From: Trichodelitschia bisporula
Lineage: Eukaryota > Ascomycota > Dothideomycetes > Phaeotrichales > Phaeotrichaceae
Direction of reading: 5' to 3'
DNA: 64,000 nt
NCBI GenBank assembly: GCA_010356995.1
Contig: ML996687.1
Coordinates: forward strand, 373,803 to 437,802
Shown piece by piece: positions 1,643 through 37,063 of this stretch. Numbering within the stretch: the first letter of the stretch is position 1; each line of letters starts with the position of its first letter. Position numbers and translations under genes: made by a program. The notes under the pieces are model-generated. The model had not been told where the DNA came from, did not search any database, and saw only the letters and a program-made list of their open reading frames with translations.

Positions 1643-3440
1643 ATGGCCAATGTTAGCCCGGCTCTGCTCGGCGCCGCAAAACCGTAAGTCACTTTCCCAT
1701 GGTACATGTTCGTATATCCCGCCCAAAGCCCCCTCGGAGAGCTCTCCGGTCCATCGTTTTCAAGCCTTCTCGGCCGTAACCCCGCCCCTGCCCTAGATGA
1801 CCTCTGCTAATACTCAATGTCAACCAGGATAGCCCGTGCTTTCGCCCTTGCCTACCTCTCCGCCACCACTCCGCGCCTCCTGTCAGCGCTGCTTGGTGTT
1901 GCGCGTGGCAAGAGATCCCCAGCGGAAGCACATTCCCTCGTAAGTTGCACGGACAGCCCGCCTCGTGGTCTTTGCCCCCTTCCCCATGGAACGTAATTCC
2001 GAGAACCTGTCCCCTCGTCGTCCACTTATGGCCATTTCCATTGTCATGGCACTGGGTTGGAAGGTTCGGCCCGCCACGTTTCAACTCTACCCGCCGGGTA
2101 GACGCTCTTTGTGCCCTAATTATGACCAAATGTATCACGGCCGTATGTTCCATTGCTGACCTTTCTAGATCGCGAGCGCACTCCGCCAGGCACTGGAATG
2201 GAATCGCTTTCCGGCCTTTTGTGCCTTCCTCATTGGCGGGTCGAGCGCGCTACAGCTTCCGTTTCGCCGCCTGCTTCGTCAATTAAATGGCCGGTCGAAG
2301 AAGTGGCATCTTGACGGCCTCATCGTCAAGCGGCTAGCGCGCTTCCTCGCCGCGCTGCTTGCTGCCGCTGCGGGCTTCGAGGCGCTGAACAGTCGCCCGT
2401 ACTCTGACGCAGCTGCCCGTGTCTATCTCGCCGAGAAGGCTGAGAAGACCAGCACACCGCAGCCAGACAAATCATTGCCAATTCCTACTCACCCCATATC
2501 AGCAGCCCGCATCCCCCCACTCGCGGGTTACACCCTGCCTCTAACCCTTTTTGCATTCACACGCGCTCTGGACACCACCTTGCACCCTCACGTGCCCAAA
2601 TGGACACCCGCCGCTACATTCGCCCTCTCCTCGGCCGCCATCATGCATGCCTTCTTCTACACACCTAACCGTCTTCCACCAGGCTATGCGCGGTGGATAT
2701 CTCTTCTAGCAGATCTAGACCAGCGCCTTATCAAAGTCCTCCGCGAAGCGCGCTATGGAAATTTTGTGTACGGAAAGGATACCGGCATCAAAGACCTGCT
2801 CGGAAGCTTCTGCCGGGAGTTAGGTCTCCCAGAAAAATGGGGTGATCCCGCCGTCACCATCCCAATTCCATGTCTTGTTGTCCACCAGGGAGAGTGTCGG
2901 TCGTGCGAACGCAACGCCATCAAGCGTGCTCTGCGTGCTGCACGCCAGGCACTCTCCCTTTACCTACCGTTGCAGATCATGTTCTTGATTCTGCGGCGAT
3001 TTGGTGGCGCGAAGATTAGGATCGCAGCTCTGCGTCGCCTGCTTGCAAGCAGCGCACGGTCGGCGGCATTCCTAGGCTCATTTGTCGGTCTCTTTTGGTA
3101 TGGAGTATGCCTTGCTCGAACACGGGTTGGACCCAAGTTGCTAGGAAGGTGGATCGGGCCGCAGGCTTGGGATGGGGGACTGTGCATCGCAGCTGGTTGT
3201 TTGGCATGTGGAGGGAGCGTGCTTATTGAAGACGCAGCGCGGCACGTGGAACTGAGCTTGTTTGTGCTTCCCAGGGCGCTGGGCATAGTCCTTGGCCGGT
3301 TCTATGAAAGGAAGTATTTGAACTGGGAGAGGGGCGTGTTTTGTGTCTCTGCAGCAACACTGATAGCCGTGGCGAGAGAGAGACCGGAGAGGGTGAGAGG
3401 GGTTTTTGGGAAGATACTGCAGGGCGTTTTGGAGGGTTGA
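1643..3440 (+). CDS. TMEM135/peroxisomal-type integral membrane protein
   Basis: Three exons, 1643-1683, 1828-1939 and 2169-3440, give 474 residues; introns are GT-AG (144 and 229 nt, long for this window) and phases match. The start ATG at 1643 gives MANVSPALLGAAKP, joined in phase to a hydrophobic segment. Several hydrophobic helices follow. A Cys/His cluster (CLVVHQGECRSC, about residues 286-297) resembles the Cys-rich region of the TMEM135 family, whose animal members sit in peroxisomal or mitochondrial membranes and are related to Tim17/PMP24-type proteins. I infer a peroxisomal or mitochondrial membrane protein of unknown biochemical activity. The fungal relatives are usually annotated only as integral membrane proteins. 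Family placement is likely; function is not known. Confidence 0.8.
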
Positions 3441-3768
3441 TCTCGAGAATGTTGTGTACGATTATGTATGCAGTTCAATGTAACATTTTATTCAGCCGAT
3501 TTCCCGAGAGATGTGAATGCCTTTGATCTTTGGCAACCTCGTTCACAGACCCGATTCGCTTTAATTGCTCAGTGATTCGGATGCTCTTCCGCCAAAAAAA
3601 AAAGCCTTACTCTACCAAATAACGCTCGCAAGGCTGAGACCATTCACTCAAGCCATTGGAGAAAACGGTCGGCCCGAACCCGAACGTCCGATTCGACACC
3701 ATTGTCGTCCCCATACCGCACTTCCCGCGTCGTCTAAAATGGTCAAAGACAAAAAAAAGATCAACTCT
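3441..3768. other. Spacer between membrane-protein gene and tRNA-Ala
   Basis: Holds the 3' UTR of the gene to its left and the region downstream of tRNA-Ala. A run of A at about 3593-3603 and one at about 3751-3758 are present; read on the minus strand the second is a T-run just after the tRNA 3' end, as expected for an RNA polymerase III terminator. Nothing else is seen. Confidence 0.5.
3750..3758 (-). terminator. RNA polymerase III terminator of tRNA-Ala
   Basis: The A-run on the + strand is an oligo-T run on the transcribed strand, about 10 nt beyond the 3' end of the tRNA. T-runs of four or more are the known Pol III termination signal. Confidence 0.6.
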
Positions 3769-3839
3769 GGACTCGCCGGGAATCGAACCCGGGACCATCC
3801 GCATGCTAAGCGGATATTATACCACTAAACCACAAGCCC
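3769..3839 (-). tRNA. tRNA-Ala (anticodon AGC), no intron
   Basis: The reverse complement folds as a 71-nt cloverleaf. The acceptor arm GGGCUUG pairs with CGAGUCC; the anticodon stem UCCGC/GCGGA encloses a 7-nt loop UUAGCAU with anticodon AGC at + strand 3805-3807; the T-arm has the canonical GGUUCGAUUCC core. The third acceptor pair is G3:U70, the established identity element for alanyl-tRNA synthetase, which confirms the assignment. CCA is not encoded, as expected for a eukaryotic gene. The D-loop contains the usual GG pair. A34 would be edited to inosine to read GCU, GCC and GCA codons. Confidence 0.95.
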
Positions 3840-5071
3840 GATGGTTGATTGGACGAGTTTCCCATTTTTAAAAAATGATTGGGATGCAACGAGCTCAACA
3901 TTACCTGATGATATCTCGCTCTCAAGCCAGATTTTGCGTATGTCCTATGAAAACGAGGCGCATTTTATGCGGCCTTGAGAGGATGCTAATGATGAAATTC
4001 GGAGGCCGGGATGTGAAAGTCTAGCCGCGCGGTCAACATGATTGACAAAGGAAGCCGAGTGGTGTTCACGGTGTTCCATTTTGGGCATCGGAAAAGCGTT
4101 GGGACGAGCCGGGATCTCAAGATTTGGGGGCCGACTTCACCTGCCAAGATCTAAACACCAAGACCTGTTCACCTCTTGAGCTGGCTAGAATAGGCATCTC
4201 GAAATCCCATACATGTCTCTTGGAGCTCGGACTATGAGGCGCATTTTCTGGGCATCTCTTTGCCGGTTTCTTGCGTTGTATCGGAAGTATCTCCGCGCGA
4301 GCATTATCTTCGCTGATGTCCAAGATCCGCAGTGCTAAAGGTCCGCCATGGCACTAATATGCTACACTCAGCCATCCCTATCGCGGGTGGTTTCTGGGCT
4401 GCGGCCGACGCTTTTGCTACGTTTCTTGTAGCCAAACATATGACATGCCCCGACATATATCCTCAATATCTCAAATCCATCTAAGCCCCTTAGAATCTTA
4501 GGGCTCCTGGTACACCTAATTGAATGATCGCCCCTTGGCATAGCTAGTTGACGAGACTTAGGCGAAGAACATCGATTGCTGCCATGCTCAGGTTAGCAGC
4601 GGGACTCAGAAACAATCTGTCGGCTTAGAATTCGAGTACAATGCAATGTCATCAGAAGTGTGCTGCAATGTCGAGCGGTATCTAATGCAAATTCCGTCGG
4701 ACGAGCCTCAGCCTCAGCCGGCTAATGCACTGTTAGTGTTTCGACATCAACACAACGGTATCCTTGCCCCGACAACGTCTTGGCCGTACCTTTTGCCTGG
4801 AATCCCTTCCAACCATGCCGAAAGATTCGTCCTAAAACTGGAGAGGATACGATTCCACTGGCCACGAGCCTGCGCCTCATGGGCCCTAGCTTCGTTGGCT
4901 GGGCATGGTACCTGATGAAGAAAGGGTACTTACTGTCGCGCATAGTAGTATGGGGTGTCACCACGATGCGCAGGGCAGCGTTTCGCTTCATCTGTCGTTT
5001 TGATTTTGTCGATTTCAGCGATTTCCGCCTTGCATTTCCTTGTTGTTTAGTGCTTGGATTCGTCTACGGGC
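3840..5071. other. Intergenic, no gene seen
   Basis: About 1.2 kb without a convincing gene. Short open frames at 4117-4323, 4646-4915 and 4722-4991 overlap one another on both strands and show no recognisable domain. It contains the promoter of the surface-protein gene that starts at 5072. Confidence 0.5.
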
Positions 5072-11292: not shown

Positions 11293-14200
11293 ATGAATCC
11301 CGACGGTTACCCCCGGGGGATGGTTATGGGCGGTATACCCATGGGCCAGGAGTCCAGTGTCCAGCCTCATATTCGGCAACAACTGTTGGTGCGCTTCCAA
11401 AAGCAGGCGTCGGCCTACCCTCCCCAGGCCTGGCAGTCGACTCTCTCACCCCAGGATCGCCTCACAAATATCTTCCAACTGTTAGTTCGCACGTCGACTT
11501 TCGTGCTTTCTCGTATATAGCTAACACGTCTAGCTTTACTTTATACCAGCTAGCCAAGCCTGAACTGAATGCACAGGACTCTTTCCGACACAGCGCGAAT
11601 ATCGAAACCGATAGGTTCGGCAAGGCCGATTCGAAGGTTTGCAGCATCCGTTATCCACCCCTCTAGCTTACTGACGCCCATTGCAGGTCACCTATCAAAA
11701 TGAATTAAAGAAGCTGTTGCAGATTTTGACGGAGGCGCGAACTCGACAAGCACAAAATGGGATGGGTATGGGTCCTGTTAATGGCCAGCAACCGGGAATG
11801 GGCGGTCAACAACAGCCGATGGGAGGGCCGGGCATGATGGGAGGCGCACCGATGCAGTCGACGATATCAGGTCAAGGCCCGCAGGTTCACCAGCATTTCC
11901 CCCCGCAACTCCAACGACCCATGCAGCCCTCGCCGATCCCTGCGAGCAACAACGCTGTGCCGGAGATGCCGAATATGGCCACAACCCATCAAGTTCCACA
12001 ACAGCAACAAGCCCAGCAGCCATCCCAGAGACCAATGCCGCCACTGACGGCCGCGGAAAATCAGCAGGTGAATAACGCGGCGCAGAGGATGTACAACGCT
12101 CTCGATGCGACAATGAAGGAGCGCATCATGCTCGCCTTTCGCCAGCACTCACCCGAACGCCAGCAACACCTTGCCCAACGGTTCCGGGATCCGTATATGG
12201 CTTATTGTCTCCAGCAGGCTCAGCACAAGTTCATGGAAGCCAAAGCAGCCGGACTTCGAGGTCCGCCCAATGCTGGCGGAAGCGGAATGCCGGTGCAAAA
12301 CCAGATGCCACAGCGGCCCACGCAGCAGCTCCCCGGCGGTCAAGGGATGCACGGACAGGAGGTTGATTTTGCGCAATTTCAGGGCCAACAGGCAGATGCC
12401 ATCCGTTCGCAGGACGCCGGCCAAATGGTAGTCCCGGCGAGTAACAATACCAGCCTGACGCCGCAGCTAGGCAGCTTGCCGCTCAGTATGGGCCCAAGCG
12501 TCCAAGCGCCCCCCACGCCCAACCAGATGGTTAGCATGGGCCAGCGACCACAGCTTTTTGGGCCGCAACATCCGGCAATGGCGCAAACGCCTCAAATGCA
12601 GGCTCGGGCCCATGCCCAGGCTCATCAGCAAGCTCAGGCGCAGGCCCATCAACAAGCCCAGGCGCAAGCACAGCATCAAGCACAGGCGCAAGCTCAGGCA
12701 CAAGCTCAGGCACAAGCTCAGGCACAAGCTCAGGCACAAGCTCAGGCACAAGCTCAGGCACAAGCNNNNNNNNNNNNNNNNNNNNCAAGCTCAGGCACAA
12801 GCTCAGGCACAAGCTCAGGCACAAGCTCAGGCACAAGCTCAGGCACAAGCTCAGGCACAAGCGCAGGCGGCCCATGTGCAAGCTCAGGTTCAGGCGCAAG
12901 CCCAATCTCAGGCTCAGGCCCAGCTGAATCAGAACAACCGCGCCCAGATGATGCAATCCGGACAGCAGATCAATATGCAGCGGACCATGGGAACGCCTGG
13001 CCCCCAGGTCAACACGATGCCTTTGATGACTCAGCCAACCGCCACGAATCCCCCGCTACCCGGCAGACCTCAGCAGCCTCAGGGCATTCAAACGGCCTTG
13101 AACCCCTTTGGCCCGAACGGTCAACAAGGGATGCAGCCGATGCGGCAGTTGCCTGCATATCTCCAGCAGTTTACCCCCGATATTCGTAATCAGTTAGCCA
13201 CCATGCCCGATGAGCAATACCGTCAGGCTCTCGAAAAGCTCAGCGCCGTGCGTACAGGAATGCCCATGGGCCAAGGTCGCCCTTCAGCCATGGGTCCTCA
13301 GAATCCGGCTCAGGGGCAGCTCATGGGCCAGGGTGACCAGCAAGTCGGACGCGGACAAGCACTCCAGCCACCTCAGATGCAACCCGGGATGATAGGCCCG
13401 CAGGGAATGGGTAGAGGGATGCCTCCGGGGATGATGTCTCGTCCGATGCCGCCAGAAGTCATGGCTCTCATGGATCAGCGTCCAATTCTGCCCAATATGT
13501 TCAAACAGCTACCAGAAGGCATTCGAGTATGGGGCCAGTTGAAGGCACTGCTCTCGCAGAATCCGACGGCCATTCCGGGATTGGACCCGTCGCGGATCCC
13601 ACAGCTGCAGGCTCTTCACTATAACAGGTTGATCCAGGTTCAAGAGGCACAGCGACAGCAGCAGAATGCAATGAACTCCCAGCAGCAGCAGCATCGGGAG
13701 CTGCAGCTGCAGCATCAAAACGCCATGAACGCCCAGCAGGCTGCGAACCAAGGCCCGAATCCTCTAGGAATGGCCTCTGCTGGCCCCGCTCCGCCTGCGC
13801 AGATGGTTCCTCAGCAAGGTTCTCGGATGGGCATTCAAGCCATACCGGGAGCGTTTCCTGGCAACATGTCCATGCCTGCCGTCAGCGCACAAGACCTCCA
13901 GGCCGTAAGGATGAAGAACCCGCAGATGAACAACATATCGGACGAAGCGCTTCGCCAACGCCTCATGCATCACAGGCTCCAGGCGATGCGCTTGAATCAG
14001 CAACAGCGACCCGGACCCCCCCCCCAGCAACCACAGCCGATGCCCCCGCATGGGCAACGCTTTAGAGCACCACCCCATGGGCCTCCTCCTGCACCGCAGG
14101 TTCAGCATTCACCTCCAGCGCACGTCTCGCAGTCCCAACCGGCGCCTCCCAAGATGCAGGCAGCTTCTCAAGGCCAACCGCAGCGCCAGCAACAGCAGTC

Positions 14201-32217: not shown

Positions 32218-35200
32218 CTAGCGTGATTCTTTCTCAAGCGCCATGCGGAGCACAAGCGCCTCTAACTCCTTCAGCCTTGCTTCCAACTGCTTCACATCCT
32301 TGCCCCCGGCCGGCTCCTGACCTTCCACCTCCACCTCTTCCTCCCGAAATGGCTGTACATCGATCTGGATCTCCTTCCTGTAGGCTCTACCATGGTGGGC
32401 GCTGGGGGGAAATGCCGAAAGCTTAGAAGGCTGCACTGGCGACCTAGGTCCCTCAGACATTGCCGTTGATATGGTGGAGTACGGCCGGCTGCTGACGGAC
32501 GCGTTGCGTGCTACCGGGAAGCCGTGCAGCGTTTCACCCGAAAATGTACTAGATGTTGGTGAAGTCGGCGAAGTCGGAGCTGGGATACGGGTAGGTGGCG
32601 GCGTTCGCACAATGACCGGCGACCCTGGAAGCTCAGCTGGCAAGGACGTTTTTGAATCCGCAGTGGGCTGCTGCACCAGCGACGCAGTCTCGCCGTCCAA
32701 CAGCTTTGTTCTGTTTGACAGGCTCGATACGATAGAGTTGCTGCGCCCTGACCCACCCGCTTGCCAAGGTTTCGAGGACTTTGAGCGGATGGAGGCGCTG
32801 GAGGAGCCGCTAGAAAGTGTACCACTGGCGGCCTTTCTGGCTGCAAGAGCTCGACGGTGTTCTACGCTACATTAGCTTCAGACCCTGGTATATATCCAGC
32901 TACTCACTCATGGCCTTGGTCTCCTGGATGCCCAAAGATCGTGGAAAGCCACTAATCAGGCATCCTTCGTCCTCATCCAGGAAGAGAAAGGCTTCCACAG
33001 CGGAGAGCTTCGAGGAAAGCGCTACAGTGACATGTGGGAGGACAAAGCGCGAGCGAACAATCATCTCCTCGGTTATTTTTGGTGTAATGTCGAGAATCTG
33101 ATCGTGTTGGCCGGCTGTGCGGATTACGAAGCGTGGCAAAGTCCTGCTTTTCTCCACGAGCAGCTTTCCCAGGTTGCTCAACTCCGTACTCTCATTGGCA
33201 AAACGACACAGCAGGTACCCTGTCACGGTTAATGGGGTTTAGGAAGGTAGAGGGCTAATACCTTTGACAGTACATATTTGATCGATGTTTGTGAAGGAGT
33301 CTCCCTCGGGTTCGAAGTAGAAGAGAGTAGCGATCAGCTTTCTAGCAATACCTTGGATATCCTTTATGTCAATATGAGATCTGATGAGCTGCTTGAGTGA
33401 CTGCATCTGAGAATAGTCGTCCGCTGCTGGCAGGTGAACAAGCGTAGGATTTACACGGACGTAGCGCAGATGTGCTGTAACCGCAGAAATGCTATGGGCG
33501 AAGTCATCTGAAACCATCTGGGCCCGTTTTGGAGATGAAGCTCTCCTATACCCATTTTTCCCCTTCTTTATGCTGCCAAAAACAGAAGAACCCGAAGAAC
33601 TGGCGATGGACCCGTTACTGGAGGAAATTGGTTCGGCTTCGCGGCCTGTCCCAATGGAGATCATAAAGTCTGGAGGCCGGACGCCTTCGCCGTCTGTCCA
33701 GACTAGCTTGCGTTCTTTGTCGGCTACAGTAACTGGATTGATTTGCCAAGTATCCGCAGCTGTGTAAACTTGCCTAGATGGAAGATGATGAAAGGCCTTG
33801 AATAGCCTCGGGGTGGACATTGTAGCCCTCGCACTGTGTCCAGTGTCAGTCGGTGTTCAGGCTTCGCTTTGGAGCACAACTTACGCTTCCCACACTTTCA
33901 TTTCCATGTATTGCTGGCCTGGGCGGCAGAACTTGTAGGGCACTAAAATGGTGAGTAGCTTATTTGGGGAACCGTGGAACGAACGTACACTGCTCTGTTC
34001 CGCGTCGGTTATAGTTAGCAAATACAGCTGGCATCCCAGCCGAAGATGTAGCCGTCACCACCACTTTCGGGCTAAAGGCCGGAGAGGACTCCACGGCCCG
34101 ACCGAAGAGAAGCTGTGATATGTGGAATGTCCCAGTTACGGCAGACTCGAGTGCCTCGGTGTCGTATTTGGATTTGCTGTACGATTCCAGTAAATGGCCG
34201 ATGCCTGGGAGCCCTCGTCCCGGACGCCGGGCATACGCCTGCTTGCATAGGCGCTCAATGTTGTGCGCGCATCGCTCAAGAGACCACCCTTGGGTGGTAA
34301 GCCCGAGAGCAATGAGAGCGCTAGTGCTGTAGAGGGTTAGAGACGGGCTTGACGGGCAAGAGAACTTACTTTGTTCCGACTATCATATCGCAAAATGAGG
34401 ACAATTGCAGTCTCTCGTTCCACTCATTCTCCAGGAGGCGCAGAATCTCGAGTTGAACGACTGCTCGAATGCCGCCACTAGCACAAGTTAGCGAAGGCAT
34501 GACGTCTGACCGATGTACTGACCCGTCAAGCACGAGAATTCTTGAGCCCGCCGCTTCTGGCTTCAGCTTTATGACTGCTGGCTTGTGTTCCGGGAATTCG
34601 TTTCTGTCTAAGGGACACTGATACACCTCCACATGTGAGTCGCCTTTGACGTGCCCGAAGTCTTTGATACAAGCGGTGCACAGTATGTGGCCGCAAGGCA
34701 GTATGTGCTCGGGATGATCAAAAAGACACCCAAGACAAATGGTGTGACAGTAAAAGAACCGCTCACTTCCTCGGAGGGTATGCTGGTACATTGGAAGCAA
34801 CGTTTCTTCGCGATGTATATCGTGCGCAGCAGCCTCTTGGGACTCTCCTTCATTTACACGCTCCGCAAGCCTTGTCATGAGTTCTTGGAGGCGGGTGAAG
34901 ACAGTATGGTGGAACTCTCCGCGATCCTCTTCAAAAGAGAAAGATGAAACGTAGGCTCCAGAGGCAAAAATGGTGCCTGATTTGGTTTGATGGCCTTTTG
35001 ATCCATGGCCGCTTCGGACATTGACGCATTTGGATTTCGCCACCAGTTGTTGTAGGTTACGGTGAGCCGTAATGCCGTCAAGGTGTTGTTGCCACCAAGG
35101 GTACTCTGCACCGTGAGCCATGAACTCACAGGGCCAATGCCGATTGCAGAAGTCTTCGAGCGCAAAATCCAGATGATCAAGGTATTCCGGAAGGATCCTT

Positions 35201-37063
35201 TCAGCATCCCCGGGGATTTCATGTCGAACGGAGTCCAGCATAATGCAAGATGCAACCACAAGGGCCAATTGCTGAAATATCTCTCGAGCTCCAACCTTGC
35301 TCCCTTGCTGCTCCGTGATGTTAATGCCCAGCCGAAGTATGTTGCCTCCAAAATCTGTAGGTATGGGACTGTTGACGAATGACGCCTGAACAAAGTCAAA
35401 CGCTTCCTCCAAGCTGTGGGCGAAATGATCGAAGGCGTAATGCAGATAAGACTGCAGCTCTGTGGCATTGAGTAATAGTCTTAGAGATTGCTTCAACCCA
35501 CGGGTTGTTTTACATCCGTGCGCAATGCCGCCGTACAGCTTTTCGACTTGCTCTCGGATCAACTTGGGCCGTCCTGCACCTGGGATACGAATAATCTGAA
35601 TGGTTAGCAAGGACTGTCGGCAAGGAATACGAACTCTGGTCGCTGACCTGAATAGAGCTGTAATAACACTGCACAAGCTGCTGAAGGGTGTTGATATATT
35701 TCCCTCTCTCTTTCCAGAAGTCCGCATATTGCCGAAATGCCGCATTGTCATGGACCGTACTCGACAGAGACTCAAGCAAGCTGTTGGTGACGAAGTCGGA
35801 ATCCCACATCTCTGCAGGAAGATTGACTTCAGAGGCATTGAGGGCAATGATAGCGCAGGGAAGTACAGGCTGATTGGAAGAAGTTTCCAGCGCGGCCGCA
35901 GCCCACTCAATCAAACGCTCAAATACACTCTCAATGACTCTGCAATATGTGAGTGAGCTTAAAGCGGTCTGGTGAAGATAGAGTACCTCGGATTTTTTAG
36001 GACAAAGACGATGGTGTCTGAGAAAGTGTATAACAGTCGCGGATACAAATGAGTGACTGCAAACTGCCTCGTTCTCCGGTGCGGAGTATTGGCCCAAAGC
36101 AGTGCTCGCTCGGAGCCGAACTGATTCCTTGACACTTCATCTGTTTGTGTTTTCTTATAGTTTGTGTTCGTCTCGTTCCTGGTTCGCCGAAACATGGTCC
36201 CAACGGGCTCCCTTTCTCCTCCTTCCAGCCCTTCGCAGTCAGCATACAGCAGCGGAGCTTCCGAAGATATCGTGGCAGGATCGGAGTAAAGGTGGACGTC
36301 TTCGGAGGTAGGCACATCTTTTCCAGACATTCCAACAACCGGAGCGGGCTGCTGGACTCTGCCTGCGCCACCCTTGAAGGTGATAAGCAAGTTGATGAGT
36401 GTGCTCTTGCCCGCCCCACTTTGACCAACAAAAGACACCAAGCTGGGGGTCCGCATATCTCGAGCGGATGCTTTGCTGACTTCGGAGTCCCACGATAGTC
36501 GACGGGACGATCCCTCCGCTCTTGTACCCGTCATGATCTCGGCGAACCGGCCAGAATCCTGAAAGATGAGAAGCTGGTCCGATGGGACGTTACGATTGAC
36601 ACCTGGGCTAATCAGATACGCCTCCGATGCGTGGTATGTTACTGACCAAACCATGCGGTATTCTCATCCTGCGCGCAGAGCTTCGCATACACGTCCTCAT
36701 TACTGGGCGGTGACAGTGCATTCTGGACTTGCTTCGCGACCCACGGATTTGCCCTTTCATGAATTGCAGCCGAGCCCGTCGCCTTGGCTCCTACCCTCTT
36801 GCGGTGTGGAAGCTGAGCATTCCAGCATCTGTCGCAGAAGACGAAATCGCAAGCATAGCAGAAGTACAATGCTTGCTGTATGGTTGACTCTTCCTCTTCG
36901 CATGCCTCGCAGCAGATTTCGGCCTCGTCGGCTTCATCGAAGTCGTCGAGATTTATTGTACCTGACCTGGAGATTCTTGTCAATCCAAGGCAACATATAA
37001 CGGGAGACAGACGTACTGTGGTGGGGGATATTGGCTACCAGGTCGATCACTGCGGCCCACCAT
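32218..37063 (-). CDS. Multidomain protein: zinc module, GTPase, RING finger, pseudo-patatin
   Basis: Eleven exons: 37063-37017, 36966-36647, 36602-35987, 35939-35648, 35595-34523, 34477-34370, 34326-33989, 33942-33885, 33833-33262, 33219-32908 and 32861-32218; all introns are GT-AG, 42-52 nt, and phases agree, giving 1459 residues. Order: a ZZ-like zinc module near residues 25-60 (CCEAC, CYAC, CDRC); a P-loop GTPase domain with GQSGAGKSTLINLLI (about 180-195) and a DxxG-like DCEG; a helical region; a RING finger (about 705-755; CHTICLGC, CGHILC, CPLD); a patatin domain starting at DGGGIR (about 783); then a Ser-rich disordered tail ending in a short coiled coil. In the patatin domain the nucleophile elbow reads GTNTS where GTSTG is expected, and the DGA/DGG motif before NP reads AAD. 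Both catalytic residues are therefore missing. Patatin domains occur as effectors in fungal NLR-type proteins, so a regulatory or immune-type scaffold is conceivable, but this is inference. Confidence 0.85.

What the first reader, a model, noticed from the sequence alone, without database searches (positions are those of the whole stretch)
32218..37063. Patatin domain with both catalytic residues replaced
The oxyanion motif DGGGIR is intact across the splice at 34523/34477, and downstream family landmarks (FANYNRRG, WEAARAT, SIGTG, NP) are in place. But the nucleophile elbow reads IVGTNTSALIAL where related proteins have GTSTGG-like sequence (Ser to Asn, Gly to Ser). The acid motif, normally YxDGA...NNP, reads YTAADTWQINP (Asp to Ala at the aligned position). 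Losing both halves of the Ser-Asp dyad while keeping the fold and an open 1459-residue frame points to selection for a non-enzymatic role.
Basis: partly seen in the sequence, partly recalled or inferred. Interest (0 to 1): 0.78.

Follow-up and report, generated by a model that had tools for sequence, protein, structure and literature searches.

The report
Fungal lipase-fold protein lacking its dyad
A fungal gene encodes a large multi-domain protein whose lipase-type (patatin) domain has lost both residues needed for catalysis, and its three sister genes in the same genome have each lost part of that machinery too, so the domain probably works without being an enzyme.

Summary
Minus strand 37063-32218 holds an 11-exon gene for 1459 residues. 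Its patatin domain (PF01734, E 6.8e-10) keeps the oxyanion loop DGGGIR but has Asn819 at the nucleophile and Ala976 at the acid site; both columns align without gaps at the motifs to intact patatins of the same genome. None of 12 in-frame splices, the model included, gives GxSxG.

Three same-architecture paralogues exist in the genome and none has a full dyad: two have Ser to Gly, one keeps Ser but has Asp to Gly and a broken oxyanion loop. All four share two intron positions, one splitting the nucleophile codon. At least three separate losses are implied. In the two Ser-less sisters the patatin domain is under purifying selection (dN/dS 0.33, 95% 0.21-0.47); in the window protein it is not eroding faster than the rest.

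Best reading: a retained pseudo-lipase module in a zinc-finger, P-loop, RING-like, patatin protein. Activity, expression and partners are untested, no orthologue from another fungus could be fetched, and 2 of 8 other patatins of the genome also lack Ser.

The parts
32218..37063 (-). Whole gene: exons 37063-37017, 36966-36647, 36602-35987, 35939-35648, 35595-34523, 34477-34370, 34326-33989, 33942-33885, 33833-33262, 33219-32908, 32861-32218; 1459 aa
   Evidence: splice model, no internal stop; whole-genome match to itself; paralogue alignment
36792..36917 (-). N-terminal Cys/His zinc-finger-like region (ICCEAC ... CYAC ... CDRCW ... HRKRV), residues 33-74
   Evidence: several Cys/His shared by all 4 paralogues; Pfam C1_2 only E 0.014, below cut-off
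35987..36435 (-). P-loop NTPase domain, GTPase-like: Walker A VGQSGAGKS (residues 181-189), DCEGL (244-248)
   Evidence: both motifs shared by 4 of 4 paralogues; only P-loop-level matches among the 60 of 89 PDB sequences shown
34606..34737 (-). RING-like zinc finger CLGC...CGHILCTAC...CPLD (residues 712-755); eighth ligand position is Asp755 where the 3 paralogues have His
   Evidence: no Pfam RING hit in this protein; weak zf-RING_UBOX E 0.0084, below cut-off, in paralogue L030
33644..34575 (-). Patatin domain (about residues 766-1014)
   Evidence: PF01734 E 6.8e-10 over residues 779-967; family profile against CapV E 7.8e-15
34465..34527 (-). Intact oxyanion loop DGGGIR, split by the phase-2 intron 34522-34478
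34317..34377 (-). Nucleophile elbow GTNTSA in place of GxSxGG: Asn819 codon AA|C split by the phase-2 intron 34369-34327; Gly to Ser821
33734..33766 (-). Acid motif YTAADTWQINP in place of Y-x-D-G-x(5)-N-P: Ala976 at the Asp site
32218..32861 (-). C-terminal exon, Ser/Pro-rich tail with a short charged end, not matched in the modelled part of the paralogues (whose models stop before it)

Best explanation
The gene encodes a real multi-domain fungal protein (zinc finger, P-loop GTPase-like domain, helical middle, RING-like finger, patatin domain, tail) whose patatin domain is a pseudo-lipase. Shown: both dyad residues are replaced, the family's sequence landmarks are kept, and the same-architecture genes found in this genome have become dyad-incomplete along what are most simply three separate lines. 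Inferred: the nucleotide-binding part drives assembly or switching, and the patatin fold now serves as a non-catalytic module, most likely a lipid- or partner-binding surface or a structural seat next to the RING-like finger, as in other pseudoenzymes. The family ancestor most likely was a dyad enzyme, because Ser survives in one paralogue, Asp in two others and the oxyanion loop in three of the four.
For: Gene model and residues. Patatin match over the Pfam cut-off. Family profile aligned to CapV across both catalytic motifs, and profile A2 to CapV and iPLA2beta across both. Three paralogues of the same architecture: GSGAGA/SYLDG, GSGAGA/SYLDG, GTSGGG/AYLGG with DSTN in the oxyanion loop. Identical intron positions with the nucleophile codon split: AA|C, GG|T, GG|C, AG|C. 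Tree joins the 4 at 100/99. Patatin dN/dS 0.325 (0.214-0.465) between the two Ser-less sisters. No faster erosion of patatin in the window protein than in the rest of it. No rescuing splice.
Against: Purifying selection is measured on the sisters, not on the window gene, by one pairwise method, and counts as selection on a Ser-less domain only if Ser was lost before they split. The window protein is a long branch (1.78) and the tree program warns that joins of long branches may be false. No structure model was made of the spliced protein, so the placement of Asn and Ala rests on sequence alignment. Dyad loss is not confined to this family: 2 of 8 other patatins of the genome lack Ser too. The helical middle and the binding or scaffold role are inference; nothing here shows a ligand or partner.
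Confidence: 0.6

Rival explanations
1. Relaxed constraint: the patatin domain has simply become dispensable in these proteins, the zinc fingers and P-loop domain do the work, and the dyad is decaying before the fold does.
For: Different dyad parts are lost in different paralogues, as expected if no one loss is selected. In the window protein 51 of 89 three-way conserved patatin columns are kept against 53 of 70 in the P-loop domain. Patatin dN/dS of the sisters is higher than that of the P-loop domain (0.33 against 0.19).
Against: dN/dS of 0.33 with an upper bound of 0.47 on a Ser-less domain. All four reading frames are open through the modelled region and fold landmarks are kept. In the sisters patatin has a lower dN/dS than the C-terminal part (0.73, 0.53-1.03) and the N-terminal finger (0.84, 0.43-1.75, an interval that just overlaps).
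Confidence: 0.2
2. Disarmed effector: the ancestral patatin was a membrane-damaging warhead of a self/non-self or stress response, and each copy in this lineage was disarmed independently because the active form was costly, leaving regulators or decoys.
For: Patatin is a cell-death effector in fungal NLRs: PLP-1 death depends on patatin activity (PMC12881547 and PMC10197012, passages read). Most simply three separate losses in one genome. N-terminal finger and C-terminal part of the sisters evolve fast (dN/dS 0.84 and 0.73, wide intervals).
Against: No NB-ARC or NACHT domain was detected in the window protein, L030 or L032, and the architecture is not that of the known NLRs. The window gene sits among metabolic and trafficking genes, and no immune-type Pfam domain was found in the 10 C12 neighbour frames scanned, of 24 listed.
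Confidence: 0.12
3. It is still an enzyme, with an unusual active site, as reported for plant pPLAIII proteins that carry GxGxG.
For: Plant pPLAIII have GxGxG instead of GxSxG, and these papers treat them as acyl hydrolases (PMC7284883, PMC4204433, PMC4253999, passages read). L030 and L031 here have GSGAGA with Asp kept.
Against: The window protein has Asn, not Gly, at the nucleophile, Ser at the elbow's second Gly, and no Asp at the acid site. Asp978 and Ser821 are each two residues off in an alignment without gaps at the motifs.
Confidence: 0.06
4. Artefact: a wrong splice, an assembly error or RNA editing hides an intact dyad.
For: The nucleophile codon straddles an intron, and AAC differs from a Ser codon by one transition.
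Against: 0 of 12 in-frame pairs give GxSxG and 0 of 15 restore the acid motif. Both intron positions are shared by all four paralogues. The only run of N is at 12766-12785. A-to-I editing could not turn the Ala codon GCT into an Asp codon (from the genetic code).
Confidence: 0.02

Closest known systems
Patatin-like phospholipases: Pat17 (1oxw), iPLA2beta (6aun), bacterial CapV (8zr9)
   Same: Sequence family, oxyanion loop of the DGGGxR kind, order of landmarks; family profile aligns with CapV across both catalytic motifs; shorter matches to iPLA2beta and Pat17
   Different: No nucleophile Ser and no Asp. Chain 9kej, a CapV entry, has Ala where 8zr9 has Ser; that it is a deliberate catalytic mutant is inferred
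Plant pPLAIII subfamily (GxGxG)
   Same: A patatin subfamily with the elbow Ser replaced; L030 and L031 here show the same GxGxG pattern
   Different: The window protein has Asn and lacks the acid as well; architecture differs (the latter from general knowledge). pPLAIII motif from passages of PMC7284883, PMC4204433, PMC4253999
Fungal patatin NLRs such as Neurospora PLP-1
   Same: Fungal multi-domain protein joining a patatin domain to a nucleotide-binding P-loop domain
   Different: PLP-1 has an N-terminal patatin, NB-ARC and TPR, and needs patatin activity (PMC12881547, passages); in fungal NLRs patatin goes almost invariably with NB-ARC (PMC4986451, passages). Here patatin is C-terminal to the P-loop domain, no NB-ARC or NACHT was found, and the dyad is gone
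Pseudoenzymes in general (pseudophosphatases, FLIP(L))
   Same: Retained fold, lost catalytic residues; such proteins often regulate (starts of abstracts in the listing)
   Different: No pseudo-patatin of this architecture stood out in the listings seen (in only part of the hits was listed)

Membership tests
Patatin-like phospholipase domain (PF01734) | Sequence match over the curated cut-off | tested here: met
   39.9 bits against a cut-off of 27.7
Patatin-like phospholipase domain (PF01734) | Oxyanion loop DGGGxR | tested here: met
   D782-R787 DGGGIR
Patatin-like phospholipase domain (PF01734) | GxSxG nucleophile elbow | tested here: not met
   G817-T-N819-T-S821-A822
Patatin-like phospholipase domain (PF01734) | Catalytic Asp in a DG[A/G] motif | tested here: not met
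   Ala976-Ala977
Patatin-like phospholipase domain (PF01734) | Lipid acyl hydrolase activity | not testable with these tools
   no assay
Patatin-like phospholipase domain (PF01734) | Three-dimensional fold with the dyad sites placed by structure | not tested
Fungal patatin NLR (STAND) | NB-ARC or NACHT domain with repeats | tested here: not met
   no such Pfam hit listed with max_evalue 1 in the window protein or in L030 and L032; L031 was not scanned
Plant pPLAIII-like GxGxG patatins | Gly in place of the elbow Ser (GxGxG) | tested here: not met
   window protein has Asn; met in L030 and L031
P-loop GTPase | Walker A GxxxxGKS and DxxG | tested here: met
   GQSGAGKS and DCEG, shared by 4 of 4
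P-loop GTPase | NKxD base-recognition motif | tested here: inconclusive
   looked for by eye only: LN without K or D at the likely place; no GTPase family over its cut-off
RING finger | Eight Cys/His zinc ligands | tested here: inconclusive
   seven fit by eye; the eighth position is Asp755 where paralogues have His; no Pfam RING hit in the window protein

The most novel reading that the evidence does not exclude
A fungal family of zinc-finger, P-loop, RING-like, patatin proteins in which every copy found in this genome has lost its lipase dyad, along separate lines, while selection keeps the patatin fold: a pseudo-lipase family that turned a membrane-attacking enzyme into a sensing, binding or restraining module.
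Probability: 0.45. Interest if true: 0.65.

Novelty: new variant of a known kind. Interest (0 to 1): 0.5.

Why it matters
Patatin domains are usually annotated as phospholipases on fold alone, and in fungal NLRs patatin activity is tied to cell death. A set of four genes in one genome that have each lost part of the dyad, with measurable selection on the Ser-less domain of two of them, argues that such annotations can be wrong and gives a natural set for asking what a patatin fold does without catalysis. The intron that splits the nucleophile codon in all four genes is a clean marker for tracing the losses in other fungi.

Tried and rejected
Alternative splicing as a rescue: rejected. Register shift using Ser821 or Asp978: rejected on the alignments. 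A guanylate-binding-protein identity for the P-loop domain: suggested by DCEG and its position, but the profile search of solved structures shows only P-loop matches, mostly ABC transporters, in the 60 of 89 sequences listed, so it is left as GTPase-like. Relatives outside this genome: IMG/VR viral contigs gave 24 pattern matches and 0 relatives; the bacterial and archaeal species collection gave 53 pattern matches and 0 relatives. A first attempt there with the 8-row alignment failed for lack of conserved columns. No collection of fungal genomes is on hand and the metagenome collection allowed no scan, so orthologues and dN/dS for the window gene itself could not be had. dN/dS between the window protein and its paralogues is useless because dS is saturated in nearly all blocks. 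dN/dS was computed on gap-free codon columns in six domain blocks, and over their whole span for the overall value. One stretch of L030/L031 that could be either a short insert or an intron was kept as coding. A contrast of intact dyads, 0 of 4 family members against 6 of 8 other patatins of the genome, gives Fisher p = 0.06, too weak to lean on, and the four are not independent. Paper searches for a described pseudo-patatin of this kind: 34 hits, 15 listed; 28, 15 listed; 1; 0; 65, 10 listed; 1; 4. Judged by titles and starts of abstracts, none is on the subject; unlisted hits were not seen, and only open-licence papers are in that library. Searches were paper searches on neighbouring topics. 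One paper search was rejected for a slash in a term.
Full report
What was checked. The window lies in a 25.65 Mb genome of 30 contigs (window = C1:373803-437802). On the minus strand, 37063 to 32218, I built a gene model from GT-AG junctions and frame continuity: 11 exons, 10 introns of 42-52 nt, 1459 residues, no internal stop.

The residues. Read back from the DNA: D782-GGGI-R787 is complete and its second codon is split by the intron 34522-34478. The nucleophile elbow is G817-T-N819-T-S821-A822. The Asn codon AAC is itself split by the intron 34369-34327 (AA from 34371-34370, C from 34326). The acid motif is Y974-T-A976-A977-D978...N983-P984, with Ala (GCT) where the Asp belongs. FANYNRRG, WEAARAT and ISIGTG are in place.

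Is the placement right? Pfam PF01734 matches residues 779-967 at E 6.8e-10, 39.9 bits against a cut-off of 27.7. In an eight-row alignment (the window protein, three paralogues, three intact patatins of the same genome and the Ser-less L006) Asn819 sits under the Ser of GTSTGG and Ala976 under the Asp of DGG/DGA. A profile of the four family members alone finds CapV (8zr9) at E 7.8e-15 and lines up its GTSIGG and DGG motifs with the family's elbow and acid columns; iPLA2beta and Pat17 follow with shorter matches.

Could a different splice rescue it? I scored 43 GT/GC-AG pairs around the nucleophile intron. 12, the model among them, stay open and in frame with the next exon, and 0 of 12 contain GxSxG. 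Retention of the intron runs into a stop. Around the acid motif 15 in-frame pairs gave none with DG[AGST]. The only run of N in the window is at 12766-12785, far away (all).

The relatives. Searching the whole genome with the protein found three further genes of the same architecture, all on contig C12 within about 50 kb: 163.4-166.6 kb (-), 172.5-175.7 kb (-) and 209.8-213.3 kb (+) (fetched as L030, L031, L032). The search scores only its best candidates, so more members cannot be excluded. I modelled the three by spliced alignment; the modelled parts have 1202, 1196 and 1184 residues with no stop. L030 and L031 read GSGAGA at the elbow (Ser to Gly) and keep SYLDG. L032 reads GTSGGG (Ser kept) but AYLGG at the acid site (Asp to Gly) and DSTN where the oxyanion loop should read DGGG. 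So none of the 4 has a complete dyad and oxyanion set, but between them every part survives in at least one copy: Ser in L032, Asp in L030 and L031, the oxyanion loop in the window protein, L030 and L031. The simplest history is a dyad-complete ancestor and at least three separate losses.

The introns. All four genes have phase-2 introns at the same two places, inside DGGG and inside the nucleophile codon. The nucleophile codons are AA|C (window), GG|T (L030), GG|C (L031) and AG|C (L032). If AG|C is ancestral, each change of residue is a single transition, with a further synonymous third-base change in L030. This supports both the gene model and common descent.

The tree. With the catalytic motifs left out, the four form one group against four other patatins of the genome at 100/99. 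The window protein branches first at 79/80. Its end branch is long (1.78) and the program warns that such joins may be false, so its exact place is unsure. On this tree of 8 rows the nucleophile changes at least 3 times (one of them in L006, outside the family) and the acid twice.

Is the dead domain kept? L030 and L031 share the Ser to Gly change and are close enough to measure. dN/dS (Nei-Gojobori, bootstrap 95%) is 0.325 in the patatin domain (249 codons, 0.214-0.465), 0.188 in the P-loop domain, 0.238 in the middle, 0.665 in the RING-like part (0.31-1.37), 0.84 in the N-terminal finger (0.43-1.75), 0.73 in the C-terminal part (0.53-1.03) and 0.39 overall. If the Ser was lost before they split, as the shared GSGAGA suggests, this is selection on a Ser-less domain. 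For the window protein dS is saturated, so I used a relative test: of columns identical in the other three, it keeps 51 of 89 in patatin and 191 of 306 elsewhere (Fisher p = 0.39). Its patatin domain is therefore not collapsing faster than the rest, although the P-loop domain is better kept (53 of 70).

Controls in the same genome. The Pfam search gave 13 matches in 12 loci. Three are the C12 paralogues, one (C8, L036) is a fragment, and eight are other genes; the window gene itself was not among the matches, its introns cutting the domain. Of the eight, six show an intact Ser motif and an Asp motif (L001, L002, L003, L004, L005, L007 = L034). L006 has GTGTGG with Asp kept. L035, a triacylglycerol-lipase-like gene by its likeness to L001 and L003, has GNGIGA and a gap where the acid motif should be. 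So dyad loss in patatins also occurs outside this family here, which tempers the surprise. Intact dyads are 0 of 4 in the family and 6 of 8 outside it, Fisher p = 0.06.

Other domains. Walker A and DCEG are shared by all four, but the profile search of solved structures shows only P-loop-level matches in the 60 of 89 sequences listed, so GTPase-like is inference. The RING-like finger has seven of eight usual ligands in the window protein by eye; the eighth is Asp (CPLD) where the paralogues have His (CPLH). Pfam does not call it in the window protein and only below cut-off in L030. No NB-ARC or NACHT domain was seen in the window protein, L030 or L032 (L031 was not scanned).

Surroundings. The window gene sits among ordinary genes: a Mug190-type protein, an HMG-CoA-lyase-like enzyme, a RabGAP, tryptophan synthase, a glycosidase-like protein, a replication-factor-C-like ATPase and a potassium transporter (10 frames scanned, 2 without a hit). 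Around the C12 genes, of 10 frames scanned out of 24 listed, 5 had hits: a MaoC/MFE-2 enzyme, a polysaccharide lyase, two alcohol acetyltransferases and an OPT transporter.

How it most likely works. I take it as a pseudo-lipase module in a nucleotide-driven, zinc-finger protein. Shown: residues, sequence family, shared architecture, dyad loss in all four genes found, selection on the patatin domain of the Ser-less sisters. Inferred: that the losses were separate, and that the domain binds lipid or a partner, or seats the neighbouring RING-like finger. For comparison, the fungal NLR PLP-1 needs an active patatin for cell death (PMC12881547 and PMC10197012, passages read). Plant pPLAIII proteins carry GxGxG and are treated as acyl hydrolases (PMC7284883, PMC4204433, PMC4253999, passages read). 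That second case warns against calling a Ser-less patatin dead on sequence alone; the window protein goes further, with Asn at the nucleophile and no acid.

Limits. No orthologue of another fungus could be fetched: 0 relatives in viral contigs and in bacterial and archaeal genomes, and no metagenome scan was allowed. No expression or activity data exist here.

Noticed in passing
L036 (C8:34583-34723): A copy of a patatin exon closely like that of L002 (C5:428789) lies next to frames that read by eye like a retroelement pol gene: a possible captured exon.
   Followed up: no
L035, about 2640-3840 (C7:884438): A triacylglycerol-lipase-like patatin outside this family with GNGIGA at the elbow and a gap at the acid motif: a second dyad-less patatin in the genome.
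   Followed up: partly
L006 (C5:29663-30001): A patatin with GTGTGG at the elbow and Asp kept, the same GxGxG pattern as plant pPLAIII.
   Followed up: partly
window 34606-34617: The last zinc-ligand position of the RING-like finger is Asp in the window protein and His in all three paralogues, so this finger may also be altered.
   Followed up: no
L030 and L031 (C12:161500-168500 and 170500-177500): N-terminal zinc finger and C-terminal part have higher dN/dS (0.84 and 0.73, wide intervals) than the P-loop and patatin domains, as recognition surfaces sometimes do.
   Followed up: no
window 35041-35115: The window protein has a 25-residue in-frame stretch (586-610) before CVNV that none of the three paralogues has; it could be an insert or an unrecognised intron.
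   Followed up: no
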